Origin: Russula earlei
Taxonomy: Eukaryota > Basidiomycota > Agaricomycetes > Russulales > Russulaceae
Direction: 5' to 3'
NCBI GenBank assembly: GCA_025769875.1
Contig: JAGFNK010000071.1
Location: 91,087 to 155,086 of the forward strand
Length of the DNA stretch: 64,000 bases
In this document: piece after piece, positions 21,660 through 37,872 of the stretch
How the letters are laid out: each line of letters begins with the position of its first letter
How positions within the stretch are numbered: position 1 is the first letter of the stretch
Notes under the pieces: generated by a model
The model's input: the letters and a program-made list of their open reading frames with translations, nothing else
The model's database searches: none
What the model was told of the DNA's origin: nothing
Made by a program: the position numbers and the translations under genes

Positions 21660-21806
21660 TGTCATGAACCAGTTCCCAGAGGGAGCCCTTGAAGGACCCT
21701 TACTTAATAGAGGAAACCCAGCCTCCATGGTGCCACCCTGTTCACATGGGCAAAAGGGGTGAGTAGAGATGTCCACAATATCACACATGCATTGTCGTGT
21801 GAGCAA
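21660..21806 (+). mobile_element. Outer S-family solo LTR, left piece
   Basis: Begins TGTCATGAACC after the target site CATAT (21655-21659). Together with 36814-37629 it makes 963 bp, exactly the length of the S LTR at 21883-22845. Split by the copia insertion, whose target duplication is AGCAA here (21802-21806) and AGCGA at 36809-36813. Confidence 0.85.
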
Positions 21807-23353
21807 TAGTGAAGAAATTGGGTGAAGGTCCGAGGGTGCAACAATCAGTGCATGAGAGCGGGAGCTGAAGGAGACATGCAGATGTCATGAACCATTCTCC
21901 GGAGAGGGCCCTTGAAGGACCCTTCCTTATGAGAGGAAACCCAGCCTCTATGGTGTCACCCTGTTCACATGAGCAAAAGGGGTGAGTAGAGGTGTCCACA
22001 ATATCGCGCGCGCATTGTCACGCGAGTGATTCTTGGCACAATCGACATACAGCAAGCCCCACTTAATGGCAACCCTTCTAGCAATAAAGAACAGTATTAG
22101 GGCCTTCCTAAGGACCCTTTAGGATGGCTCTAGGTGCTCTACAATAGGCACTAACCTAGTATCAAAGACCCTACAATGCGTTATTAGACCAACTCTAATA
22201 ACTATAGAATGAACTATAAGGCAATACTAAGGACCTTAATAGAAGTATTAGGGTTGACTCTAAGGACCCTAATAGAACTATATAAGAGCCTTATAAGATA
22301 ACACTATTCCCTAAACCAGACTACAGGTCCTCAAATGACCAGCCCTAAACTAACTAACAGAAAATGAATCAGGTGTGCGCACATGCACTAAAGCAGTGAA
22401 CATGTGGACAGTGAAGGCTCTTACTCATCAAGAGAAGCCTTCTTACTCAGCAGCTTACAGAGCATGACTGAGCATGCTCAGTAAGTGCACTCCGACTTCC
22501 TACTCATCACTCTATTGTGCTTGATAACAAGGTTATGACTTGTTCCCTATTTAGCAGTTCTCTTGTAGTATATAAGCGCTCAATAAAGTAGCAGACAGTC
22601 CTCAGACTGTCCATTTGTTTACAGCACTCTCTATCCCTGGGATACTCCTTTAAGGACCATCCCCTTGTGACCATTCTGGCCTCTTCCCTGTGTACCTGCT
22701 CAACTCTTCCAGTAACTATACCTCTCTGGTATTTGTTACTGCTTTGGACTCTTCTTCTTGCCCACACCGTCTTGGATGTCTATCGACTTGTCTTCGAGCT
22801 TACCCCTCGCTCTTGAACTGGATAGTTCAACAGTGAGTCTTGACAGCAGAGGCGTTTGGGATAGCAAGATGAGAGACTCTGTCTCCCTTTCTCTTGATTC
22901 ATTGTGGCTCACTTTCCGAGCCCTTTTAAGTACATTCTGTGTGTATAATATTTGTAAATACTTGATCGTAAGTTTTTATGAGACAGTAAGTAAATTTTTG
23001 AGGGTTAAGTAAATAGTGTTGCCTTTGTGGCCTTTAGCCACGGCGTTGAGCTTGCATTTGGTGAGCTCTGTGGTGTCCTCCATGAGTTAGGACTTTCTTG
23101 CTGCAATCTGTATCTGAGACAGTAAATTTTTTTTGTTTTTTTTTTTTGACTTTTTAACTTTTAGTATGAGCGATCAGGGGCTGGTGGAACAGTCATGGGA
23201 TCAAGACTAAGATTCCTGAAACATGTTAAAATCCCCCCACGAAGGGGGGTGTCCAAAAATTTTGTCCTGGGTCCTTCCAAACCCAGAGGTGGAGCGCATT
23301 GCACCACAAAGGTGCTCCACACGTTTTCACCTTTGGTGGAGCAAAATCCACCA
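21807..23353 (-). repeat. Copia 3' LTR, split by an S-family solo LTR
   Basis: LTR pieces 21807-21882 and 22851-23353 (about 579 bp) match 28845-28917 plus 36298-36808. The polypurine tract GAGAGGGGAG lies just inside, at 23354-23363 on the minus strand. Confidence 0.85.
21883..22845 (+). mobile_element. S-family solo LTR inside copia 3' LTR (963 bp)
   Basis: TGTCATGAACC...GAGTCTTGACA with 5-bp target duplication GCAGA on both sides (21878-21882 and 22846-22850). Contains a TATA-like GTATATAAGCG and a CAATAAAG signal near 22568-22590 on the plus strand, followed by a CT-rich tail, so its sense strand is probably plus. Confidence 0.9.
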
Positions 23354-23363
23354 CTCCCCTCTC

Positions 23364-24161
23364 AAGCTTGACACAATCCCAGAGAGGAAACATGAAAAAG
23401 CACCTTCCATTGGGAAGGGCTTTGGTTAACACATCCGTGGTCATGTCATCCGTCGGACAGTAGACTAGTTTTAGCACTTTTTCGGTGACAGAGTGCCAAA
23501 TGAAGTGATATTGAATATCAATGTGCTTGGTCCACGCATGGTAGTTGTCACTCATGGCAAGCTTGAGTGCTGACTGGTTGTCACAATAGAGTGTTGTGGG
23601 GTCAGTTTGTGCTTGGAATAGTTCCCCTATGAGTCTTTGGAGCCAGATGGCTTCTTTTGCTGCATGCATTGCGGTGATGTATTTGGCCTCAGCAGTGGAA
23701 AGAGTGACAAGCTCCTGCTTCCAGGAGCTCCAGGATACTGCCCCTCCATCAATGAGGAAGGCGTGCCTGGAAATGGCACACCTATATTCTTGATTCACGC
23801 CATCCATGTCGGTGTACCCTAATAGATCATGACGTTTGCCACCATAAGTTAGCTCGTATGTCCTGGTGCCAGTCAAGTATTGGAATATGCATTTTATGGC
23901 TTCCCAATGAATATGGCCCAGATTCTCGAGGTATTGCAATAGATTCACCACAGTGAATGCGATGTCTGGGTGGGTTGTGATGGAGGCATACATGAGGCTA
24001 CCAATGGCCTCTCTGTACAGCGTTTTTCTCATCTGGGCGAGTTCAGCTGGGCTGCATGGGCAGTCATCCCTGGAGTATGTCACTCCCAGGATCATGGGTG
24101 TGTCAAATGGCTTCACATCTTGAAGTGCGAAACACAAGAGGATGCTGTCGATGTATGTCAT
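23364..24161 (-). pseudogene. Copia RNase H and end of pol
   Basis: Long open frame with copia connection and RNase H motifs: GSLMYASITTHPDIAF, then GYTDMDG (first Asp), STAEAKYI (Glu), YCDNQSALKLA (Asp), HIDIQYHFIW and DVLTKALPNGR. The catalytic acidic residues are present. It is separated from the RT frame by a stop or frame change near 24170. Confidence 0.85.
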
Positions 24162-24179
24162 TTGAGATAGGGAAATGGT

Positions 24180-24896
24180 TCATGTGGATTGGTTGCGTGT
24201 CACTTTGATGCCTAGGAGCCAATGGATGGGCCCCAGATCAGTGAGTGAATACTTGCTGTTGAGTTTTGTTTTGTATTTGGCAATCAACTTGGATGAATCG
24301 CCTGTGAGAGCACAGTTGTCAACGTGTATGGTGAGGATGAGGGTGTGGTTCCCTTCACAAACATGGAACACCCCTAGGTCTGCATTGCTAACGTGAAAAC
24401 CCAGTTTGGCCAGAGCGCACAAGAGGGTGTCGTACCATTTCCGTCCTACCTGTTTCAGCCTGTATAACAACTTCCGCAGCCATTTTACTGTACCCTTGCC
24501 CTTCCCACCCTCATATCCTGGAGATGGTAGCATGTAGATTTCTTTGTCCTCGTCCAGTTCGCCGTTTAGATAGGCACTGTTGAAATCAAAAGAATCCACC
24601 TCCCAATTGAGGCAAGCGGCAAGCACGAGGATCGTGTGCAGGCCTGCGAGTTTGGCAACAGGGGAATAGGTATTGAAGTAATTGACCCTGTGCACTTGCA
24701 TGAATCCTTGTGCGACCAGTCGGGCCTTGTATTTGTTGACACTTCCATCAGCCATGCGTTTGATACAAAAAACCCACTTGGATCTGACAATGTTCTTGTT
24801 CTTTGGGTGCAGGATGTCATTCCATGTTTTGGCATTTTTAAGTGCCGTGATCTTGTGGTCCATGGCCTCTTTCCAAAGAGGCCAGTCAGTGTTCAC
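24180..24896 (-). pseudogene. Copia reverse transcriptase, catalytic motif altered
   Basis: Contains WKEAMDHKITALKNAKTW, KARLVAQGF, YFNTYSPVAKLAGLHTIL, VDSFDFNSAYLNGELDEDKE and LRKLLYRLKQVGRKWYD. The active-site motif reads HVDN instead of the copia HVDD, and YGLKQ reads YRLKQ, so the enzyme would be inactive. A TGA at 24899-24897 separates it from the upstream frame. Confidence 0.85.
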
Positions 24897-24899
24897 TCA

Positions 24900-26650
24900 C
24901 ACCTCAGAGAGTGTTCTTGGGTCACCCTCCACCTCCTGAATTGTGGCGGCAACCGCTTCGTTGAGTTCTGCACAGTATGCATGGTCTGCACATTCAGTGG
25001 TCAGATTAAGCATGCACTCTGTGAAGTTCAGGTGCCATGCTCGTGAGCGATGTGTTGCGGTTCTGTTGCCGTTGGGGCCCCTCCCGTCTGTCATGCCTTC
25101 ACCACTGGCAATTCTTTTGTAGTGATCTGAGGGTTTCGGAACTCGTTGAGATTGGCAAAGGGGTGCTGGCGATTGGTTAGTAGTGCTGGGTGGCATTACT
25201 GCCCGTTCCTCTTTTTCCTTCTCCTCAGTCTTAGGTTGCTTGTCTGTTTCCTGGTCCAAGTCATCCTCCACTTGAGGCAAAACCCCTCTGCTAATGACAT
25301 CAGGTGAGCTTGGCGTGCTCGGAGTGGGAGTCCCAGTGGGAGGCAGAGTTGCGGCTGCCAGCTGCAGCGTTGCGGCTGGCGTGTTGGTCGGCGTCGAAGG
25401 TGTCGTGAGCAGTATGACGTTGGTGCTGGAAGATGGGTGGTGGGTGGCTATGGGTACGAACACTATGTTCCGCTCCACCAAGATAGTTTTGCGCTCTGGC
25501 CAGTAGATTCTGTGTGCATGAGTGCTGTCAACATCATAGCCCACCCAATGCGCTTTGGTTGCATGTGTGTCCAATTTTGATCCTGTTTTGTTGTGCACCC
25601 AGACGCATTGGCCTCACTCTGGCACCCCTGATAGGTCAGGCTTGTCCCTGCAGAGATGTTTGTGAGGTGTCACATTACTGAGTACTCAAGTTGATGTGCG
25701 GTTCTTTAGCCAGACAGCAAATTGAATGACTTGTCCCCACAGATTCTTGGGAAGTTGTGTGTGATGCTGCATGGCATGTACGCATTCGAGGGGTCAGCGG
25801 TTGAGTGACTCAGCCACTCCATTGTGTTGAGGGGTATCATGTGTGGTAAGGCATCGCTCTGTTCCTTGTTCCTTGAGGAAATTTGAGAATTTGCTGCTGG
25901 TGTACTCCCCTCTGTGGTCCGAACGGAGTCACTTGATGGAAATGTTGTATTGGGTCTTGACCCACAATGCATACATCCTGTATGCCTCAAAGGCTTTGTC
26001 CTTCATCTGAAGGAGCACAATTTTGGTGTATCATGTGTGGTCATCTGTGAACATAATGTAATACTTGCGTGCCCCGAGGCTGATCATGCGGGCTGGCCCC
26101 CACATGTCTGTGTGTATTTTGTCCCCAAAGGCCTCAGCCTGAGGAGTGCTTCTCTCCTTCTTGATTGGCTTGCGTGTTGCTTTGGCATACTTGCATGACT
26201 TGCAAAAGAAATTGGAATGGGGATCTATTAACTGCAGTCCAGTGACTGCATTAGAGCAGACAAGAGTGTGGATAGAATTGGCGGTGATGTGCCCAAGGTG
26301 TCAATGGAGTGTGAGAATGTCCACATGTTCTGTTGCTGCATGCACTTGTTGTGCCGCATGGGCCACTTTGTAAAGTCTGTTCGGGCTTGCGCTTATGCAT
26401 CCCACCTCTTCCCTGCTCCCTTTTTGATTTTGCATGCATTGTCTTTGAAGGAAACTGAGTATCTAGAGTGTGCAATGTGGCTTATTGATACAATGGTGAG
26501 TGCCAAATACAGCACATGGAGGGCATTGCGTAATGTAACAGGCATGGTCAATGACCCATTTGGTACATCAATTTGCAGGTTGCCTGTTTCTATCGCATAG
26601 AAGATGCAATTATTGGCTGCACTGATGGGTCTGGGTGGTATGGGCTGATA
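24900..26650 (-). pseudogene. Copia integrase and linker, stop-riddled
   Basis: In one frame with stops read through: a CKSCKYAKATRKP zinc-finger end, KIHTDMWGPARMISLGARKY (first Asp), LRSDRGGEYTS-like second Asp region, then HNGVAESLNR (Glu). The Thr/Pro-rich linker (24900-25600) follows, with VGYDVDSTHAHRIYWPERKT. TGA stops at 25686, 25794, 25929 and 26031. Confidence 0.8.
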
Positions 26651-27148
26651 AGTGACAAAACAATGATGGAAGGGTGACATATGGGTAGAGGTGCCTGAGT
26701 CATAGAGCTTGGCCTTGTGCTTGGTGCATGTGTTGCCTGCTGAAGCTGCTGATAAGTCTTCAGTTTTTCAGGGCGGCAGCCCTTTGCTTTGGATTGCCCC
26801 ATCCCCTTCCTGTCCATCCTCCTCTACAACAGTCCATGCTTCCTCCATGTCCATTGCATACTTGGCATCATGCTGGTTGTGGCTGCGACCATCACAGTCC
26901 TCACGCGCCAGTAGATCTTGAAGACAATCGGCTTGATTTTCTTTGATACACTTGATGGCTGCCCAGGCCTCTGTGTCTTTGTCTTTCTTGGTCGCTCTGG
27001 CAGCCCCGTCCATCGACTGGGCTTTCTTTTTTGGTCCTTGTTCTTCTTTGCCACCGCCCTTGGCCCAACAGTCAGCTTTGACATGCCCTTTTTTGTGGCA
27101 GTTGTAGCATTCAATATCACATTTATTTTTCTTCTTTTAGGATCATGC
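26600..27148 (-). pseudogene. Copia gag end with CCHC zinc knuckle, and protease
   Basis: Minus strand just left of the inserted S LTR: CYNCHKKGHVKADC (CX2CX4HX4C) near 27110-27070, a Lys- and Gln-rich linker, then the aspartic protease motif DSGTSTH near 26705. One frame change separates the knuckle from the upstream DPKRRK segment. Confidence 0.8.
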
Positions 27149-28110
27149 TGTCATGAACCATTCTCCAGAGAGGGCCCTTGAAGGACCCTTCCTTATAGGA
27201 GGAAACCCAGCCTCTATGGTGTCACCCTGTTCACACGAGCAAAAGGGGTGAGTAGAGGTGTCCACAATATCGCGTGCGCATTGTCACGCAAGCAATTCTT
27301 GGCACATTGACATACAACAAGCCCCACTTAAGGGCAACCCTCCTAGCAATAAAGAACAGTATTAGGGCCTTCCTAAGGACCCTTTAGAATGACCATAAGT
27401 GCTCTACAATAGACTCTAACCTAGTATCAAAGGTCCTACAACACGTTATTAGACTAACCCAAATAACTATAGAACGAACTATAAGGCAATACTAGGGACC
27501 TTAATAGAAACATTAGGGTCGACTTTAAGGACCCTAATAGAACTATATAAGGGGCCTTATAGAATAACACTATTCCCCGAACCAGACTACAAGTCCTCAA
27601 ATGACCGGCCCTAAACTAACTAACAAGAAATGAATCAGGTGCTTGCACGTGTACTAAAGCAGTGAACACGTGGACAGTGAAGGCTCTTACTCATCAAGAG
27701 AAGCCTTCTTACTCAGCAGCTTACTGAGCATGACTGAGCATGCTCAGTAAGTGTACTCCAGCTTCTTACTCATCACTCTATTGTGCTTGATAACAAGGTT
27801 ATGACTTGTTCCCTATTTAGCAGTTCTCTTGTAGTATATAAGCACTCAATAAAGTAGCAGACAGTCCTCAGACAGTCCATTTGTTTATGGCACTCTCCAT
27901 TCCTGGGATACTCCTTTAGGACTGTCCTCTTGTGACTACCCTGGCCTCCTCTCTGCGTAACTGCTCTACTCTCACAGTAACAGTGCCTCTCTGGTATTTG
28001 TTACTACTCTGGACTCTACTCCTTGCCCATGCTGTCTTGGACGTCTATCGACTTGTCTTTGAGCTTATCCCTTGCTCTTGAACTGGATAGTTCAACAGTG
28101 AGTCTTGACA
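27149..28110 (+). mobile_element. S-family solo LTR inside copia gag (962 bp)
   Basis: Same ends as 21883-22845. Target duplication CATGC (27144-27148) and CGTGC (28111-28115), one CpG-type difference. Splits gag between FTAR and HDPKRRK. Confidence 0.9.
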
Positions 28111-28115
28111 CGTGC

Positions 28116-28760
28116 AGTGAACATGTCGTCACCTTTGGCCTTGCCCTTTCTTGGTGCACATTTGTTGTACTCGTCCATGATCAGGCAAATGACAGACATG
28201 GTGGTGACGTCTTTGCCGGTGATGTTGGCGGCAGTTGAGATGGAGTTGAGGGTGCCATCATATGATTCTGGTAATGACCCCATTACTATGTTAGCATAGT
28301 GTTTGTCACTGATGCTTTCACCCTTGGCAGCTAGCTGCTCATGCATGTCGGCGAGCTTTTCGAAGTGCTTGCACACATTGTCATCTTCTCCACATCAGGT
28401 GTTCTGGAGCTTTCTTCCTAAGTCAACAAGTAAGTTTCTAGATCTTCCTTTGAAGATCCCTTTTAATTTGTCCCACATGTCTTGTGCACAGGTGCCATCC
28501 TTGATGCAGTGGAACACCATATCAGGCACGGATGTTGTGACCATGTGCTTGACAATGGCCTTGTTTGAGGCCCAACGCGTCTTGGGGGTTATACCCCCAA
28601 TGCTCCCGGCGTCTTTGTATGCCTGAGTAATTGACGTGGAAGAGAGGTGGTCTTGCATGCTGCGGGCATTCAATGCCCACATCATCCAGTCATGGTAGGT
28701 GACCCAGTTTGAGCCGTCTGCTGTCAGCTTTGTAATTGTAGTCCTAAGGTCTTTGCTCAT
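28116..28760 (-). pseudogene. Copia Gag N-terminal part
   Basis: From ATG 28760: MSKDLRTTITKLTADGSNW and a WMMWALNAR stretch as in UBN2/retrotran_gag proteins, then VPDMVFHCIKDG, LKGIFKGRSRNLLVDLGRKL, a TGA at 28397-28395, and LPESYDGTLNSISTAANIT. Continues after the inserted LTR into the zinc knuckle at 27148. Confidence 0.85.
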
Positions 28761-28844
28761 GGTGCTCAGGTAACACAAGGTAAGTGCAAAGTGTTTCGAA
28801 TGGGGTGCATACTGATTAATTGGGCATCTCCAGGGCCCATAACC
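28761..28844 (-). other. Copia leader with presumed primer binding site
   Basis: Minus-sense GGTTATGGGCCC directly abuts the end of the 5' LTR (28845), the position of a primer binding site. The tRNA was not identified. Confidence 0.55.
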
Positions 28845-28917
28845 TAGTGAAGAAAGTGGGTAAAGGTCCAAGGGCATGACAATCAGTGCACAAGAGCAGG
28901 AGCTGAAGGAGGCATGT
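28845..28917 (-). repeat. Copia 5' LTR, inner piece
   Basis: Continues at 36298-36808 on the other side of the gypsy insertion (total about 584 bp). Confidence 0.85.
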
Positions 28918-29389
28918 TGTCACCGACTGGGGGCAGTGTCGCTGACAAATCAGTTCACACGCAAGACACTAAGTCTTCGCAAGTTTTGGGGATCTTGGAG
29001 ACGATATTGCCAAAGCAAATATGTTCTGCGGAGAGGGGAAACTACGAATAAGTCTTCACGTTGAGAAGGCTTATGAGTGGAGAAGGTTTCAGACAATATG
29101 CTTGATGTCTTGCAAGCCTACAAGTCCTGAAGTTTGAAATCCAGTGATATTTCACAGGAGAACAAGCTTAGGGCTTGTTCTCTCTTACTGACAGGTTTAT
29201 ATAGACAGTATTGTCCTATATCAAATAGTAGACATGAAGCAACAATGAGGCGATCGAGACTGGAACACGCTGGAAAGTAGTGGTACATGCAAGGCCGAAT
29301 GAGTCATGGGAACGTGTGGGAATTGTGAGGCCTGTCCGGGTAGGCTTGTCCAGTTGCCTGTCCGGTCCGATGGGCCGGTACTTGTGACA
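28918..29389 (-). repeat. Gypsy LTR (3' in element sense)
   Basis: 472 bp, TGTCACCGACTG...ACTTGTGACA. Lacks a 23-bp segment present in the other LTR; otherwise nearly identical. Confidence 0.92.
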
Positions 29390-29403
29390 TCACCCCCTTG
29401 TTA
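29390..29403 (-). other. Gypsy polypurine tract
   Basis: Minus strand AACAAGGGGGTGA lies directly before the 3' LTR, the expected plus-strand primer. Confidence 0.75.
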
Positions 29404-29407
29404 ACGT

Positions 29408-30650
29408 CTAAGCAATGTAGGGGAGGATGGTGGAGTCGCAGCGATGAGTGTGGAAATGGATCTGGTCGCGAGGGACTTGGCACATTCTGTCAGTCTTGCA
29501 TCGTCGGTGGGGGTTTCTGCAATGGTCAGCCATGTGTCCATGGCGATTGCAAAGAATACAGACAGCTAGTTTGGGACATTCTTGTGTGTCATGTCCTGCA
29601 TTGTGGCACCAAGCACATTTGTCGGAGAGTCGAGGGGAGAATTGATACCACGGGTCTAGGAGGGCTTGTTTGGCATCTTGGTGCTCTTATTCGGAAAGTT
29701 GGGGCATGGTCCCGAACAGGACCCATGGTTCGAGGCGAGCTTTGGCATTAGCTTTGGCCAGTTTGATTTCTGAGTCTCTTACTTCCCAGATCATGTTGTG
29801 GTATCTCTCACGAGCGGCGACAAGAGAGTTTGCCATTTGTCGTGTCTTCTTTATGGCAAATCGATAGCGGCGCACCTCAGCCTCTAGGGATAGGTCCTGT
29901 TCGAACCTAAGTGCCTCGTCTATGGCCGTGGTGTGTCTGAGGCCCTCTTTGAATAGGAAGGCATCTTTCTGTGTAAGAAGAGGGCGAGGGTAAGGGTCGG
30001 CTCGAGCTCAAATGGGGATACGGTGAGTGGGACACCCAGGGCCATAGGTGGCTAGCAGAGAGGGGAAACCATGCATAAGATCAGGAAGGACCAGGGGCAG
30101 TGTGTCGTCTTCATTGCCTGGGTCTAGGATTAGTAAATCTAGTCCAAGATCTCCTTCCTCCCATCCTTCTCCAAGTTCTTCCAACTCTGAGAGTTGGACG
30201 TGGTTGACAGGTGGCTCGTAGATGGGAGGTGGTGTCCTTTCGAGGTTTATCAGGGCGAAGTTTTCGTTGAGTAGGACGACGTTCTCGACTTGCTCGATGA
30301 TGGGGGTAGTGGTGCATGGGGGGAATTGGAATAGGGTCAGGTGAAGGGGAGCGAACATGGTAAGAGGGGCTGCGGGTCCTGACGGGTGAGTTGGTTCTTT
30401 GCATGGGGGATCAATTGCCGAAGGCACATAGTATAGTAGTGAGGGAGTCATCTTCCCATAGTTCGCGTGCTTGCACAATCATTGCAGCGTGTTGTGCGGC
30501 ACGTTGAATGAGTATTCTGGTGTTGATGGTTGCTGCTGTCGAGGGGGATGGCTCTCTAGATAGTGGCAAGTGGATAAGCGTGGGAGAGTGAGGGGGGGTA
30601 GGTACAAGGGTAGTAGTGGAAGTGGTGGGGGAGTTCTGTGTGGAAGTCAT
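29408..30650 (-). pseudogene. Extra gypsy ORF downstream of integrase, twin CCHC zinc knuckles
   Basis: Frame of about 410 codons from ATG 30650 (MTSTQNSPTTSTTTLVPTPP) to TAG 29410-29408, between the chromodomain end and the polypurine tract. The N-terminus is Thr/Pro/Ser-rich. After one frame change near 30415 comes an acidic middle (ELEELGEGWEEGDLGLDLL), then a charged, probably helical stretch (FAIKKTRQMANSLVAARERY ... SEIKLAKANAKARLEP). Two tandem zinc knuckles close it: CAWCHNAGHDTQEC (about 29616-29575) and CILCNRHGHMADHC (about 29561-29520), both CX2CX4HX4C. Two in-frame stops, TGA 30010-30008 and a TAA just left of 29690, break it; the same frame resumes after each. The function is unknown; nucleic-acid binding is likely from the knuckles. 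Confidence 0.75.
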
Positions 30651-30719
30651 GTTGTAGTGTCTGGGGATGGAGCAGTGAGGGTAGTCGTCTGTAGGTGGTG
30701 TCTTTTATATTTGGGATCA

Positions 30720-31730
30720 TCCAGCTGAAGCAGAATAGTATTCTTTTAGAAGTTCTGGGGCGTTGAGGTCATGGTGGTTGACCCATGAGTCATCTGATGC
30801 AGGGTATCCTTTCCAATGCATGAGGTATTGGAGTTTACGTGTTCGTCCAAACCTTCTAGCGTCTAAGATTGCTTCAATTTCGTATTCCTCCTCATTTTCA
30901 ATGGTTGGTGGAGGTCATGTAAACGGCGTGCCGTACTCCTCCATCTCCTTATCAGGGAGAAGTAGGTTGACGTGGAAGACGTCATGTATCTTCATTGATG
31001 GCGGAAGTTGTAGTTGATATGCAACTTTGGAAATTCTTTTTGTGATAGGAAATGGGCCATATCTTTTGTGCATAAGCTTGCGTGTCCCTCGTGTTTTGAG
31101 GTTCTTCACTTCTAGCCATACAAGAGTTCCTTCTTCCATTTCCTTGATGTCAGGTTTTAAGGGTTGTTGTTTGCATTCTAGAAGTTGTTGGGCATCTTGT
31201 CTAGCTTCTTCCAGTAGTTTCAAGCGATTAGTGGATGAAGGCATGTTGTTGTCTTCTAGATTGATGTTAATCTGGGGTTTGAACCCCATGAGGTGTTCGT
31301 GTGGTGATCTCCGCGATGTTTCGTGTCTCCATGAGTTATGTGCATATTCTGCTAAGGGGAGCATTTTTGCCCAGGAGTGAGGATGAGTCGTGGTCCAGGG
31401 TCTGAGGTATTGTTCTAGCCAAGCGTTCATCCGTTCTGTTTGTCCATCTGTTTGAGGGTGGAATGCAGTGGACATGTTTTGTTTGATGCCTAGGTTTTTA
31501 CATATGGCTTTGGAGAAGTTTGATGTGAATCGAGGGTCTCTGTCGGAGATGATTCTTTTGGGGATGCTGAACCAGGGCACAAGGTGTTTCAGATACTCGT
31601 GTGCGCCACCTGTTCCATTGATTGTTTTGTTGCATGGGATGAATTTTGTCGCTTTGGAGCATCCTTGATCAACTATGGTAAGGACGCTATCAAATCCTTC
31701 TGATTTGGGTAGGTCGGTAATAAGGTCCAT
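30720..31730 (-). pseudogene. Gypsy integrase core and C-terminal chromodomain
   Basis: Open stretch 31730-30915: MDLITDLPKSEGFDSVLTIV (first Asp), IISDRDPRFTSNFSKAI (second Asp), FHPQTDGQTERMNAWLEQYL (Glu region), then SWRHETSRRSPHEHLMGF and KIHDVFHVNLLLP. Just after a stop near 30915 the frame gives EEEYEIEAILDARR and LMHWKGYPASDDSWVNHHDL, a chromodomain, marking the chromovirus clade, which targets heterochromatin. Confidence 0.88.
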
Positions 31731-33590
31731 TGATACGTATTGAAAGGGGCCTTGTTCAACATGTGTGTTGAGTGGAAAGGTCGTGGCTTTCTTTCTGGGT
31801 ATATTGGTTTTGGACTCTTGGCATTTGGCACAACCTTTGACATATTGTTCTACTTTTGTCGTAGTCTAGGTCCTTTGTAGTGTTGTTTGACTAAGTCCCA
31901 GGTGTTAGCTATTCCTGGGTGTCCTGCGAAGGGGGTGTCATGAAATAGTCTTAAAATTTCTTGTCGTTTGTCAACTTTGTCTGGTAGATAGGTTTTTCGT
32001 GTGAGAATTTTGGGTGGTAGTAATGTGGTTTTTTGTTCTTCTACCCCCTTGTTAAGGTCTTTGCGACGAGAAAGTGTGTCGGCAATTGTGTGTGTGTGTC
32101 CAGACACGTGTTCCATGGTGATGTTGAAATCTTGCATGTATTGCATCCATCTGGCTTGTCGTCCTGTTAATTTTTGTGGTTCTTTGAAGTATGTGAGGTT
32201 TTTGTGGTCTGTTCTTATTCTAACTGGTTTATGGGCTCCTAGGGAGAATGGTCATCCACTTTTTAATCCGAATATTACTGCTGCTAGTTCTTTGTCATGT
32301 GCATTGTAGTTCCTCTCTGCATCCAATAGTGTTCTAGAATAGTATGCGATGGGATGTAAACCATCTTCATATTCTTGGGATATGACTGCTCCTATTGCGA
32401 ATCCTGACGTGTCGGTGTCTAGAATAAATTGTCTTGTCCATTCTGAGGTGCAGAGTACTGGGTAGGATACGCAAGTTTCTTTTAGGATTTGAAAGGCTCG
32501 GTCTTCCTTTGTTGTCCATTCCCACTGTTTATTTTTCTTTGTTAAGTCGTTTAGTGGTCTGGCTTTTATGGAAAAGTTGGGTATAAAATTTCGATAAAAG
32601 TTACAGAATCCCAAGAAACTTCTGACTTCCTTTAGCGTTGACGGGGTTGGCCAGTCTTGGATTCCTTTGACTTTGACAGGGGTCCATAGTTATTTTTCCT
32701 TCTCCTATGATTACTCCAAGGTATTCCTACCTTTCTTTTGTGGAATCGACATTTTTCTGGCATTGAGATAGAGGTCAGTGTTGTTTCAATTTGGATAGTA
32801 TATGGTTGACTTTGGACGCGTGTTCCATTTCATCATTTTTTGTAGCAATAATGATGTCGTCGATATAGATTTTTAACCATCCTTGTGCGAGTTCTTCTTG
32901 AAAGATGTCAGTCCATCATAGGTCTGAAAGGTAGCTGGGGAGTTCGTTAGTCCGAAGAACATTACTGTAGGCTCAAACAGCCCATCGCTGGTTTTGAAGG
33001 CTGCTTTCCACTTGTCTCCTTCCTTGATCTGAATGTTGTTGTAGCCCCATCTAACTGTCAAATTTGGTAAAGAGTTCTTTTCCTGCTAAGGCGTGGATAA
33101 GTTCTGGGATCAAGGGTAGTGGATATACATTGGGTATTGTCCACTTGTTTTAATTTCTATAGTCTTGTACTGGTCGAAATTTACCGTCTTTTTTCTTTAT
33201 GAGGAAGAATCCACTGGCGTATGGTGAGTTGGATCTCCTTATTCGTTTAAGTTGTAAGTTTTGTTCGAGAAATTTCCCTTGTTCCTCCTTCTCTTTAGGT
33301 GAAAGGGGGTATACTCTGCAAGTTAATCGTTGTTGGGGCGTCTGGTTTTAGGTCAATGGCGTGATCCCATTTTCTTGGTCCAGGGAACCTCTCTGACTCT
33401 TGTTCCATGAATACTGGCCCATATTGGTGGTATTGGTGAGGAACTATTTCTTGCCAGGTCTTTGGTTTGTCCTTTATTGTGCAATTCTGCCTAATTGTTG
33501 TGCTATGGTGGTTTTGCGTATTTGAGTTTGTAACCATAGTTCATCGCCTTCCTCCCAGTCTGCCAGTGCTTTGATCCATGCTGGAGTTTC
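31731..33590 (-). pseudogene. Gypsy reverse transcriptase and RNase H
   Basis: RT motifs: [12 protein letters not shown] (about 32960), YIDDIIIATKNDEMEH (active site, about 32865-32820) and MGFCNFYRNFIPNFS (about 32614). RNase H: RQFILDTDTSGFAIGAVI, YYSRTLLDAERNYNAHDKEL and VSGHTHTIADTLSRR. The integrase N-terminal region GHPGIANTWDLVKQHY is at about 31920. A TGA at 32254-32252 and several frame changes interrupt it. Confidence 0.85.
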
Positions 33591-33599
33591 TTGGTTTCC

Positions 33600-34010
33600 C
33601 TTGAGGGTAACTCTTCCCATAATGGTCCCTTTAGACCAATTTATTCTTGGATTGGTTGACTCCTAGGAATGGATATCCTAGGATGATATCATCTTGTCCT
33701 ATATCTGCGACCAGGAATTGGTGTGTATGTCTTTGTCCCAACAGTTTTAGTTCTAATTGGACAGTTTGGGTGACCTTTCCTGAACAGTTGAGCGTTCCAT
33801 CGACATTTTTGATGTTTTTGGTTGGGAATAATTTTCTGGTTTGTAGGTGTAGTTCCTCTGTCAATTTGGGAGATATAAGCATTCAGTGGCCCCACTGTCT
33901 ATTCAGGGCTTTCTTTTTGGCTTTGTTCAGTCCAATGTAAATAGTAGTCATCACTGATATTGACTTTCTTTGAGACTTGTACATGGAGTCGATACCTAAA
34001 GCTTGAGCAA
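33600..34010 (-). pseudogene. Gypsy aspartic protease region
   Basis: The active-site motif DSGATEC is readable near 33895-33875 and the rest, ISPKLTEELHLQTRKLFP ... DDIILGYPFLG, is in another frame. One base is missing right after the active site. Confidence 0.75.
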
Positions 34011-34022
34011 TTGCCATTATGC

Positions 34023-35717
34023 TCAAGCGTCCGAAAAATCCTGTCCTTTATCCTCATCATCTCCTGTTAGAGCTTTAATAAAGGCCTCTCTTTCCTCTAC
34101 TGAGAGCGCCTTTGCCGCCTTTGCAAGTTTGTCAGTCACGCTTTCTTCAATTATTTCTATGATAGAGGATTCGGATGTAGTGGTGGTTGTGTTGGTGGCG
34201 CACGCGCGAGTTGTCTCGCGTTTCGGTTTCGTGGGGCAGTCGCGGGCCAGATGTCCTCGGAGAGAACAGTGAAAGCACCTTCCTTCTTCTTGATGTTTTT
34301 GTTTTTCGGCTTCGGTTATTGCTTTGCGGGTGGCACCTGCACTGGTGTCCATCGCATTTGGGTCGCATGGTGGGAGGCGTGTGTGTGGCACGGTAGCGTT
34401 GTTGGTGGTGTTGCCACATGCACCCCAATTTGAAAGGCGGGCCCAAGGGCGGTTGGTATTTGAGTTGGTATTTCTGTTGTGAGTGTTGGCATGGTCAGTG
34501 AGGACCGCACGTTTGCACATCCAGATGCGATGTTGCTTCTGGGCACCGGACATCCACTCTTGAAAGGTGGTCGGGTCTTCTTGACTGATGATTGCTTCGA
34601 CTAATGGTTTGGGGAGACCGCACGCGAACAGGCGCATGACCATTGGGTCATCTGTGTGGAGGGATCCTCGTCGAGCCAGTAACTCAAAATTTGCTATATA
34701 TTCATCCAGGTTATTGTCCTTCATTTTTAGTTCGTGTAGCTGGTCTTGTGCATGTTCGCGTTCGGCATAATGGGTGAATGCCCATTTGAATTGTTGTTCC
34801 ATGGCTTGCCAAGCAGTGAGGCCAAAGGGAATTTCCTCCGGGTCAAGCATGACCTTTTCAAGCCACTCGTCCATCGCTTCGACCCAACCGTCGATGCGAG
34901 GTCCTTCCATCAATGATAGGAAGTAGGTGCATTTCTTGATGGGGTTTTGAGCAATTTTGCTGTCGAAATTCATCCTCATGAAGCGTCGGAATGCGGTGAG
35001 GAATGCGTGGGTGCATACGTGGTTGCCATTGAAGGCCTTAGGTGGGACGCCTTCAAGTTTACCGTTGTCGGATGGACATGTGTCGCGGTTGTACATGGCG
35101 TATGCGTCGAAGTCGTCGGGGTCTGGGCTCGGAGGTTGTCTTCCACGTCCTTTGAAGCCTTGGAAGAGGGATGGGCGTGGGTACGCCTGTGCCATTCCAG
35201 ACGACGCGAGTTGTTGAGGTATCTGTGCTGGTGGTTCTTCTGGTTTGTTGGCCGCGACGAAAACTTGTGTTGTGGTTTGTGGTTCTTGTTCCATGGGTTC
35301 AGCGGGTGCGGGTCCAGGGGTCGGAGCGCAAGACAGGTTCTTTGAGTTGGGAATTGGTTCTCCTGATTTGATGAGTTGTTCCATGTCAAGACCTTTGAGG
35401 GGGTCAAAGGTTAGTCCGAGAGCTGGGCACATGACGCGGTGGGCCTCGAAGTAGTCTTCACGGCGTCAAATTTCGAACCATATGCTGTAGAGGGTTCCAA
35501 GGCCTACTTTGGCATTCTTGTAATAAGCATAGTACCCAGTCCAAGGTACACTGTTTATTCCTACTCTGAGGAAGTGGGCATTTTCTCTGAAGGCCTCGGG
35601 AACAAGTGCGTCATTGAGGTCCGGGTTCAGTTTGAAGGGACATTTGAGTTTCTTTAGTCCCTCTTCTGTAGGCTTTCCTTGTCCTTTGAACCTCCAGTCT
35701 CTAGCCATGGAAGTCAT
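34023..35717 (-). pseudogene. Gypsy Gag with one in-frame stop
   Basis: From ATG at 35708-35717 (MTSMARDWRFKGQGKPTEEG, first Met by ATG near 35708) through TGA 35468-35466 and on in the same frame (REDYFEAHRVMCPALGLTFD) to the stop at 34023. It has a Pro-rich segment, a capsid-like helical core (FLTAFRRFMRMNFDSKIAQN ... WQAMEQQFKWAFTHYAERE) and a C-terminal knuckle CFHCSLRGHLARDC. Confidence 0.85.
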
Positions 35718-35797
35718 CTTTCAAAAATTGTTGTATTCGGGGGTGGATGCGTGTATGCGCGTTCGGGGTCAAGGGTTTGAGTGTAAGCTTGTTCTAA

Positions 35798-36292
35798 TGT
35801 CACTGACTGGGGGCGGTGTCGCTGACAAATCAGTTCACGTGCGAGACGAGCGCAGCAAGTTGAGCAAGACACTAAGTCTTTGCGAGTTTTGGGGATCTCG
35901 GAGACAATATTGCCAAAGCAAATATGTTCTGCGGAGAGGGGAAACTACGAATAAGTCTTCGTGTTGAGAAGGCTTATGAGTGGAGAAGGTTTCAGACAAT
36001 ATGCTTGATGTCTTGCAAGCCTACAAGTCCTGAAGTTTGAAATCCAGTGATATTTCACAGGAGAACAAGCTTAGGGCTTGTTCTCTCTTACTGACAGGTT
36101 TATATAGACAGTATTGTCCTATATCAAATAGTAGACATGAAGCAACAATGAGGCGATCGAGACTGGAACACGCTGGAATGTAGTGGTACATGCAAGGCCG
36201 AATGAGTCATGGGAACGCGTGGGAATCGTGAGGCCTGTCCAGGTAGGCTTGTCTGGTTGCCTGTCTGGTCCAATGGGCCGGTACTTGTGACA
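35798..36292 (-). repeat. Gypsy LTR (5' in element sense)
   Basis: 495 bp, differs from the partner mainly by a 23-bp insertion near 35850 (GAGACGAGCGCAGCAAGTTG and next bases). Confidence 0.92.
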
Positions 36293-36297
36293 CATGT

Positions 36298-36813: not shown

Positions 36814-37629
36814 TTCTTGGCACAATCAACATACAGCAAGCCCCACTTAGAGGCAGTCCTTTTAGCTATAAAGGACTATATTATAGCCTCTCTAAGGACC
36901 CCTTAGGACAACTCTAAGTGCCCTAAAAGAGGCACTAACAAGGCACTATAGGCCCTATAACATGTTATTAGACTAACTCTAATAACCATAGAACAAACTA
37001 TAAACCAATACTAACAACCTTAATAGAAGTATTAGGGTTGACTCTAAGGACCCTAATAGAACTATATAAGAGGCCTTATAGACAACTCTATTCCATGGAC
37101 AAAACCACAAGTCCTCAGATGACTGGCCCTAAACTAACTAACAGTAAATAAATCAGGTGCTTTGCACATGTACCAAGGCAGTGAACATGTGGACAGTAAA
37201 GGCTCTTACTCATCAATAGGAGCCTTCTTACTCAGCAGCTTACTGAGCCTGACTGAGCATGCTCAGTAAGTGTACCCCAACTTCTTACTCATCCATCAAT
37301 TGTGCTTGATAACAAGGTTAAGACTTGTTCCCTATTTAGCAGTTCTCTTGTAGTATATAAGTGCCCAATAAAGTAGTGGACAGTCTGAGGACTGTCCATT
37401 TGTTTACAGCACTCTCTATCCCTGGGATATTCTTTAAGGACTGTCCCCTTGTGACCATTCTGGACTTTTCCCTGTGTAACTGCTCGATGCTTCCAGTTAC
37501 CATACCTCTTTGGAATTCGGTACTGCTCTGGACATTACTTCTCACCCACGCCATCTTGGACGTCTATCGACTCATCTTCGAGCTTCTCCCTTGCTCTTGA
37601 ACTGGATAGTTCAACAGTGAGTCTTGACA
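36814..37629 (+). mobile_element. Outer S-family solo LTR, right piece
   Basis: Ends GAGTCTTGACA at 37629, followed by CATAT (37630-37634), matching CATAT at 21655-21659. Confidence 0.85.
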
Positions 37630-37872
37630 CATATTTGCTTGTGATTTGCACATTCACATACTCACGTATTTGTGTGTGATTGCACATAATGTGATGTGTA
37701 AGCCCTTTGTCAGTACCTTTTTCACCTTCACTTCAGCATGTTAAGATCTGACTGATCTTGTTACCAACTCTTCGTGAAAGAGTTGCTTGATTTAGTTCAA
37801 GCACTAGACTTCAAATCCTTTGATATTATCTCAGGAAGAATAGATGTAAGAGAAGAGAAGGGCCCCTTTCAC
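37630..37872 (+). mobile_element. Right part of the interrupted Harbinger-type relic and flank
   Basis: CATATTTGCTTGTGATTTGCA continues the sequence broken at 21659. No far terminal repeat is recognised, so it is truncated. Confidence 0.5.

What the first reader, a model, noticed from the sequence alone, without database searches (positions are those of the whole stretch)
29408..30650. Extra gypsy ORF with two tandem zinc knuckles between chromodomain and 3' LTR
Seen: after the integrase and chromodomain, and before the polypurine tract, one frame of about 410 codons (two in-frame stops and one frame change) has a Thr/Pro-rich head, an acidic middle, a charged helical part and two CX2CX4HX4C knuckles at its end. 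Gag of the same element already has its own knuckle. Known: chromovirus elements normally end pol with the chromodomain, and I know no named family for this layout. Inference: an accessory, Gag-like nucleic-acid-binding protein, perhaps a chaperone for packaging or reverse transcription.
Basis: partly seen in the sequence, partly recalled or inferred. Interest (0 to 1): 0.85.

Follow-up and report, generated by a model that had tools for sequence, protein, structure and literature searches.

The report
Third gene in fungal gypsy retrotransposon
A very common family of jumping genes in a mushroom-type fungus carries an extra, strongly preserved protein gene beside the usual two, with zinc-binding ends that probably grip nucleic acid; what it does is unknown and testable.

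Summary
Minus-strand 29408-30650 is a decayed copy of a real third gene ("ORFx") of a complete Ty3/gypsy chromovirus (28918-36292, target-site duplication CATGT), between chromodomain and polypurine tract. The genome holds >100 copies; 32 of 102 scored matches have no stop. Among 17 distinct open copies median dN/dS is 0.068 in the coding frame and 1.8-2.8 in the other sense frames, nearly as low as integrase. Of 126 best integrase copies, 81 have a listed ORFx downstream; 5 of 5 readable checks among the other 45 also have it. Diverged relatives exist in Russula earlei and metagenomes. So it is neither a one-copy capture nor a relic. Beyond the two CCHC knuckles there is a conserved third Cys/His site, a PPxY motif (47 of 50 copies) and a predicted long helix; no membrane segment, no similarity to Gag. 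Best reading: a nucleic-acid-binding accessory protein from its own cistron, tethering element RNA or cDNA to a host factor; function is inferred. [quoted passage not shown] I found no described zinc-knuckle member.

The parts
28913..28917 (.). target-site duplication CATGT, left copy (right copy 36293-36297)
   Evidence: identical 5 bp on both flanks
28918..29389 (-). 3' LTR (sense TGTCAC...GTGACA)
   Evidence: 97% identical to the 5' LTR over 429 ungapped bases; 92% over the whole length, gaps included
29390..29399 (-). polypurine-type tract AAGGGGGTGA directly before the 3' LTR
   Evidence: sequence; role by position, inferred
29408..30650 (-). ORFx, third gene of the element; broken here by stops at 30411, 30008 and 29687 and one frame change; open in other copies (mostly 415 codons)
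29438..29509 (-). conserved third Cys/His site of ORFx (H-x2-C ... C ... C)
   Evidence: H383 48 of 48, C386 48 of 48, C392 47 of 48, C406 46 of 46 copies; kept in P0002 and P0003
29519..29560 (-). second CCHC zinc knuckle
   Evidence: C-X2-C-X4-H-X4-C; each of the four residues in 47-48 of 48 copies
29576..29617 (-). first CCHC zinc knuckle
   Evidence: C-X2-C-X4-H-X4-C; each of the four residues in 45-47 of 48 copies
29690..30007 (-). charged helical part (predicted long helix)
   Evidence: among the slowest-evolving parts; helix with the best confidence of the two poor models of the relative P0002
30212..30235 (-). TPPPxYxP = PPxY motif in the fastest-evolving segment
   Evidence: PPxY in 47 of 50 copies; motif columns 0.96-1.0 against a mean of 0.72 for the rest of the segment
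30321..30347 (-). PSPDPIPIPP proline motif
   Evidence: each residue in 47-49 of 49 copies; similar in P0002
30703..30709 (-). TATA-like TATAAAA (at the place of the pol stop TAA of other copies), about 55 nt before the ORFx ATG
   Evidence: of 59 copies 55 could be read: TATAAA 36, CATAAA 16, TATAAG 2, none 1; promoter role inferred
30717..30914 (-). chromodomain, end of pol
   Evidence: Pfam Chromo 43 bits, cut-off 25.1
30915..31865 (-). integrase core to SH3-like C-terminal domain
   Evidence: Pfam SH3_Tf2-1 65.2 bits, cut-off 30; rve 24.7 bits, below its cut-off of 32.6
31853..32689 (-). RNase H and integrase zinc-binding parts of pol, in two pieces
   Evidence: Pfam RT_RNaseH_2, RT_RNaseH, Integrase_H2C2 over cut-off
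32876..33085 (-). reverse transcriptase piece
   Evidence: Pfam RVT_1 24.8 bits, below its cut-off of 29.6
33634..33882 (-). aspartic protease piece
   Evidence: Pfam Asp_protease_2 E 0.002, below cut-off
34023..35720 (-). gag, with one premature stop at 35466; one CCHC knuckle
   Evidence: Pfam Retrotrans_gag 27.5 bits, cut-off 24.1; zf-CCHC 20.0, just below its cut-off of 20.8
35784..35795 (-). 12 nt after the 5' LTR complementary to LTR position 220 of 495: self-priming type of primer site
   Evidence: function inferred
35798..36292 (-). 5' LTR

Best explanation
ORFx is a genuine, selected third gene of a high-copy basidiomycete chromovirus. Shown: position, copy number, purifying selection, knuckle pattern, third Cys/His site, PPxY, no membrane segment. 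Inferred: it is translated as a separate protein, from its own short RNA or by re-initiation; the long helix makes it oligomeric; the knuckles plus third Cys/His site bind the element's RNA or cDNA; the Pro-rich head with PPxY and PSPDPIPIPP docks a host protein (PPxY is the ligand of WW domains of Nedd4/Rsp5-type ubiquitin ligases; recalled). It would act as an adaptor in handling the element's nucleic acid (export, packaging or delivery of the preintegration complex), beside Gag rather than as Gag. Confidence below is for 'nucleic-acid-binding accessory protein needed by the element'; the host-ligase step alone I put at about 0.3.
For: Copies with open frame; median dN/dS 0.068 over 136 pairs, with frame controls; antisense frames hold 9-30 stops in each of the 17 copies, so the constraint is not that of an antisense gene; 0.096 against 0.064 for integrase in the 6 copies without a stop in either; ORFx behind integrase in 81 of 126, and in 5 of 5 readable of six others tested; relatives outside this genome, with both knuckles and third site in P0003; PPxY 47 of 50; highest 19-residue hydropathy 0.93; pol stop to ATG 50-65 nt in the 17 open copies, 5/5/7 by remainder modulo 3, so not a fixed extension of pol; TATA-like core in 54 of 55 readable copies.
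Against: No RNA, protein or binding data. No Pfam family reaches its cut-off for ORFx or its relatives. Both structure models are poor (mean pLDDT 49.1 and 45.7), and they are of the relative P0002. PPxY is absent in P0005 and P0006 (SPPPDFDY instead), and P0002 lacks the first Cys of knuckle 1, so neither is universal. The TATA-like site overlaps the pol stop codon, and 16 of 55 copies read CATAAA.
Confidence: 0.62

Rival explanations
1. Regulator or counter-defence protein: ORFx acts on the host's silencing or ubiquitin machinery in trans and its zinc sites bind host nucleic acid or protein rather than the element's RNA.
For: PPxY nearly invariant; acidic middle; the copies decay by CGA-to-TGA change (38 of 42 stops), which suggests methylation-linked defence that an element might need to counter (inference).
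Against: Tandem CCHC knuckles are in known cases nucleic-acid chaperone modules (recalled); nothing here shows a host target.
Confidence: 0.18
2. Second Gag: a duplicated or alternative structural protein that forms or lines particles.
For: Knuckle-bearing C-terminus and a helical part before it; size near that of Gag.
Against: No similarity to the open part of the element's Gag and no capsid Pfam match, while Gag itself matches. A capsid-like fold without sequence similarity is not excluded, since the models are poor.
Confidence: 0.08
3. [quoted passage not shown]
For: Same place and sense as those ORFs (PMC7264820, passages).
Against: No hydrophobic stretch fit for a membrane helix in the two copies measured; zinc knuckles.
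Confidence: 0.03
4. Captured host gene or chance frame in this copy only.
For: None found; the homologous protein of Russula earlei is an unnamed gene model. An old capture, before the family spread, is not excluded.
Against: More than 100 copies, and coding-type constraint among them.
Confidence: 0.01
5. ORFx is a C-terminal extension of Pol made by readthrough or frameshifting.
For: It follows pol closely, and in several copies the open frame runs back over the pol end.
Against: Distance from pol stop to ATG takes all three values modulo 3 among the 17 open copies; the ATG with M-S-S or M-T-S behind it is conserved.
Confidence: 0.04

Closest known systems
Additional sense ORFs between pol and 3' LTR (aORF-3S) of plant LTR retrotransposons (Vicient & Casacuberta 2020, PMC7264820; passages read)
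   Different: Those are called env-like, some with membrane segments; the word zinc does not occur in the main text of that paper
Fungal chromoviruses with 'add. ORF ... with unknown function' (Novikova et al. 2010, PMC2864245; section 5 and passages read)
   Same: The legend of a figure on fungal gypsy elements (and one of a spikemoss) lists an additional ORF
   Different: Only the legend could be read; figures are not held and the supplementary files were not open to me, so whether any of these is ORFx cannot be told
CERV of C. elegans Cer1 (PMC10309623; abstract read)
   Same: Extra protein of an LTR retrotransposon, acting on the element's own RNA (nuclear export)
   Different: Made from a spliced RNA; sequence relation not tested
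ORF3 proteins of bdelloid rotifer LTR retrotransposons (PMC5408684; abstract read)
   Same: Third ORF beside gag and pol
   Different: Those are envelope, GDSL esterase or DEDDy exonuclease types
sORF1/sORF2 of Drosophila MDG1-group elements (PMC11952523; passages read)
   Same: Accessory ORFs of elements without Env; in some Lepidoptera sORF2 lies downstream of pol
   Different: sORF2 is short with a membrane segment; ORFx is about 415 residues with none
Retroviral nucleocapsid (NC) and LINE ORF1 proteins with CCHC knuckles (recalled; weak PDB hits to NC)
   Same: Tandem CCHC knuckles
   Different: No significant sequence match (best NC hit E 0.15); separate gene behind pol; extra third Cys/His site

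Membership tests
Ty3/gypsy chromovirus (whole element) | LTRs TG...CA with short target-site duplication | tested here: met
   LTRs TGTCAC...GTGACA and CATGT duplication
Ty3/gypsy chromovirus (whole element) | gag, protease, RT, RNase H, integrase, then chromodomain at the end of pol | tested here: met
   Pfam matches in that order; Chromo 43 bits over cut-off; RT, protease and rve below cut-off in this decayed copy
Ty3/gypsy chromovirus (whole element) | place in a named clade (MarY1, Laccy, Tcn, Puccy) by RT tree | not tested
   no tree was made
Sense additional ORF between pol and 3' LTR (aORF-3S) | sense, between pol and 3' LTR, present in most copies | tested here: met
   behind integrase in 81 of 126 by capped lists, plus 5 of 5 readable of six others; before the LTR read in the window copy
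Env-like ORF | membrane-spanning segment | tested here: not met
   highest 19-residue hydropathy 0.93 and 0.78 in two copies
Env-like ORF | spliced subgenomic RNA | not testable with these tools
   no RNA data; a YAG lies in the last 45 nt before the ATG in only 10 of 17 open copies
Retrotransposon Gag | capsid domain (Retrotrans_gag/Ty3_capsid) | tested here: not met
   no match by sequence; the element's Gag does match Retrotrans_gag
CCHC zinc knuckle (Pfam zf-CCHC group) | C-X2-C-X4-H-X4-C pattern | tested here: met
   twice, each residue in 45-48 of 48 copies
CCHC zinc knuckle (Pfam zf-CCHC group) | score over a Pfam cut-off | tested here: not met
   best zf-CCHC_4 16.1 bits, cut-off 27
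PPxY late-domain protein | conserved PPxY in a Pro-rich, probably disordered stretch | tested here: met
   47 of 50 copies, P0001 and P0002; not in P0005 and P0006
PPxY late-domain protein | binding to a WW-domain ligase | not testable with these tools
   needs bench work

The most novel reading that the evidence does not exclude
A new class of retrotransposon accessory gene, spread over agaricomycete chromoviruses and their environmental relatives, that links the element's RNA or cDNA (knuckles plus third zinc site) to the host Nedd4/Rsp5 ubiquitin-ESCRT route through PPxY: a budding or vesicle-sorting signal moved out of Gag into a separate trans-acting protein.
Probability: 0.12. Interest if true: 0.85.

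Novelty: new variant of a known kind. Interest (0 to 1): 0.6.

Why it matters
Chromoviruses are widespread gypsy elements usually described with gag and pol alone (recalled; the survey PMC2864245 says that most of its full-length elements had one or two ORFs). A third gene held under selection nearly as strong as that on integrase, in a family with hundreds of candidate copies in one genome (675 in the first look), means that the usual parts list is incomplete for these fungal elements. It gives a concrete protein, with three putative zinc sites and one docking motif, on which the question 'what do extra ORFs of LTR retrotransposons do' can be tested.

Tried and rejected
Rejected: chance frame, single-copy capture, neutral relic; antisense gene; Env; Gag duplicate by sequence; Pol extension. 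The weak Pfam match SLATT_4 (17.9 bits, cut-off 27; 11 of 13 members) and the TAL-effector and ATP-synthase hits in the PDB are short or helical matches without weight. Three viral contig scans found no relative. Two AlphaFold models were too poor to compare with structure libraries, so no fold search was made. I first took the elements L071-L073 for gag-only (note); one search showed that L071 and L072 keep the first 1.2-1.3 kb of the pol piece and that L073 keeps parts of it, so that was wrong. Two notes err: that gives 75 for a count that is 76, and that says that P0002 has both knuckles, while its first lacks a Cys. One alignment with misplaced short window pieces (A2) was dropped. Counts of stops are on codons mapped by tblastn, so 'no stop' there (29 of 50) does not mean no frame change; 20 of the 50 were fetched because one search showed no stop, so the share of open copies is biased upward. 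The 17 copies are those of 26 distinct open ones (28 rows, two of them repeats) whose start fitted a fixed pattern and that had both knuckles; one of them (L006) ends after 384 codons. The most diverged open copies (L053-L057) were left out by that pattern; those without a stop are. A first count of TATA-like sites (57 of 59) took some from elsewhere and is replaced.

Full report
WHAT IS THERE. The window holds a complete chromovirus on its minus strand, 28918-36292 (7,375 bases), with LTRs TGTCAC...GTGACA, 97% identical over 429 ungapped bases (92% over the whole length with gaps), and an exact 5-bp target-site duplication CATGT. In sense order: 5' LTR, gag with one CCHC, protease, reverse transcriptase, RNase H, integrase, SH3-like domain, chromodomain, the frame in question (ORFx), polypurine tract, 3' LTR. 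ORFx runs from the ATG at 30650 to the TAG at 29408-29410.

IS IT REAL. A DNA search of the same genome (66.6 Mb, 1,374 contigs, unnamed) gave 42 matches from 40 scored of 347 candidates. A protein search with an open copy gave 102 matches from 101 scored of 675 candidates, identity down to 73%, 32 of the 102 without a stop. Open copies, mostly of 415 codons, were read directly. Median pairwise dN/dS is 0.076 (pairs with dS over 0.05 among 19 rows, two of them repeats of a place) and 0.068 over 136 pairs of 17 distinct copies. The same alignment read in the other two sense frames gives 1.76 and 2.83. Antisense frames give 1.35, 0.13 and 3.69; the low one is the frame whose third positions fall on the sense third positions, and all three antisense frames hold 9-30 stops in each of the 17 copies, so there is no antisense gene. 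Codon positions 1, 2, 3 vary at 130, 74 and 352 of 384 codons. Integrase plus chromodomain gives 0.064 and ORFx 0.096 in the 6 copies with no stop in either; over 29 copies with both mapped the medians are 0.088 and 0.114. The constraint is of the same order, a little weaker in ORFx.

IS IT PART OF THE ELEMENT. Of the 126 best integrase matches (126 scored of 2,427 candidates), 81 have a listed ORFx downstream on the same strand, 76 of them at 227-518 nt and 5 at 793-1,281 nt. Of the other 45 I fetched six of my choice; five could be read and all five carry ORFx at that place, one of them cut by the contig end; the sixth held four bases before the contig end. The lists are capped, so the 56 of 139 ORFx entries (at least two places entered twice) without a listed integrase mean little. 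Against this: of three elements with a gag close to this one that I fetched beyond gag, L071 and L072 keep gag and 1.2-1.3 kb of the pol piece but show neither integrase nor ORFx, and L073 keeps only pieces of pol; they look truncated.

RELATIVES ELSEWHERE. In 5.8 billion proteins, the whole protein and then its profile found two: P0001 (Russula earlei, 65% over residues 57-244, a gene model that leaves the family before the knuckles) and P0002 (metagenome, 30% over 91%). The C-terminal profile found six more, P0003-P0008, E 3e-25 to 2e-11 (only the candidates sharing most words were scored). P0003 keeps both knuckles and the third Cys/His site; P0002 lacks the first Cys of knuckle 1. Their genomic context could not be read. 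Three scans of viral contigs found none.

ANATOMY. Residues by L008 numbering. 1-120: Ser/Thr/Pro-rich, 48 of 120 in L008 and 51 in L038. PSPDPIPIPPR at 102-112, the first ten in 47-49 of 49 copies. TPPPxYxP at 139-146: PPxY in 47 of 50 copies (one of the three misses looks like an alignment shift), although the segment 121-160 evolves fastest (dN/dS 0.19); motif columns 0.96-1.0, the rest of the segment 0.72 on average. P0001 has SPPPAY and P0002 TPPPFY; P0005 and P0006 have SPPPDFDY, and the other four do not cover it, so the motif is in 2 of 4 relatives. 121-200: acidic. About 245-330: long predicted helix, from models of P0002 (mean pLDDT 49.1 and 45.7). 347-360 and 366-379: knuckles. 383-406: a third Cys/His site, H383, C386, C392, C406, in 46-48 of the 46-48 copies that cover each, C392 lost in one, and in P0002 and P0003. 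No membrane segment in two copies measured. No similarity to the open part of the element's Gag. No Pfam family over its cut-off.

EXPRESSION. In the 17 open copies pol ends in TAA in 15 and in TGA in 2, and the ATG follows after 50-65 nt, 5/5/7 by remainder modulo 3: ORFx is a separate cistron. At the pol end lies a TATA-like stretch: of 59 copies 55 could be read, TATAAA 36, CATAAA 16, TATAAG 2, none 1, followed by a pyrimidine-rich stretch and an A-rich leader. That fits an internal promoter; it is an inference, and the TAA is partly kept for its own sake. A YAG lies in the last 45 nt before the ATG in 10 of 17 open copies, so splicing to that stretch cannot be the general way; an acceptor further upstream is not excluded.

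MECHANISM. Most likely an oligomeric nucleic-acid-binding adaptor acting on the element's RNA or cDNA beside Gag. Knuckle function is from known NC proteins (recalled); the PPxY partner from Nedd4/Rsp5 biology (recalled). Steps shown: gene, constraint, motifs. Steps inferred: separate translation, binding, oligomer, docking.

NOVELTY. [quoted passage not shown] Novikova 2010 lists 'add. The literature searches, of which several listed only the best part of their finds (for example 15 of 57, 20 of 50, 10 of 41, 12 of 36), showed no paper that I could recognise, by title and abstract start, as describing a zinc-knuckle third gene behind the chromodomain. Hence new variant of a known kind, not categorically new.

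Noticed in passing
window 35784-35795 and LTR position 220 of 495: Twelve bases just after the 5' LTR are complementary to a stretch inside the LTR, the layout of self-primed (Tf1/sushi-type, recalled) elements.
   Followed up: partly
ORFx copies, 50 mapped loci: All 42 in-frame stops are TGA and 38 of them stand where the commonest codon is CGA: CpG-type C-to-T decay, pointing to cytosine methylation or a RIP-like process in this fungus.
   Followed up: partly
L071 and L072 (contigs C565 and C188): Elements with a near relative of this gag match only the first 1.2-1.3 kb of the pol piece and show no further match to the element; both stop within about 110 bases of each other, which could be a transposing deletion form.
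   Followed up: no
gag against ORFx: The nearest gag copies (C628, C824, C565, C188) differ from the nearest ORFx copies (C1355, C29, C523, C137), and synonymous divergence is higher in ORFx than in integrase (0.93 against 0.51 in 6 copies): possible recombination among subfamilies.
   Followed up: no
window 21660-28916 and 37521-37630: The element sits beside or within another repeat: 21807-21878 matches 28845-28916, 28002-28111 matches 37521-37630, and open stretches at 23226-25613 look copia-like by eye: probably a nested insertion.
   Followed up: no
window LTRs 28918-29389 and 35798-36292: LTRs are 97% alike over 429 bases, yet ORFx and pol are broken and ORFx is 9-10% away from its nearest copies: the RNA that gave this insertion may already have been defective and helped in trans.
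   Followed up: no
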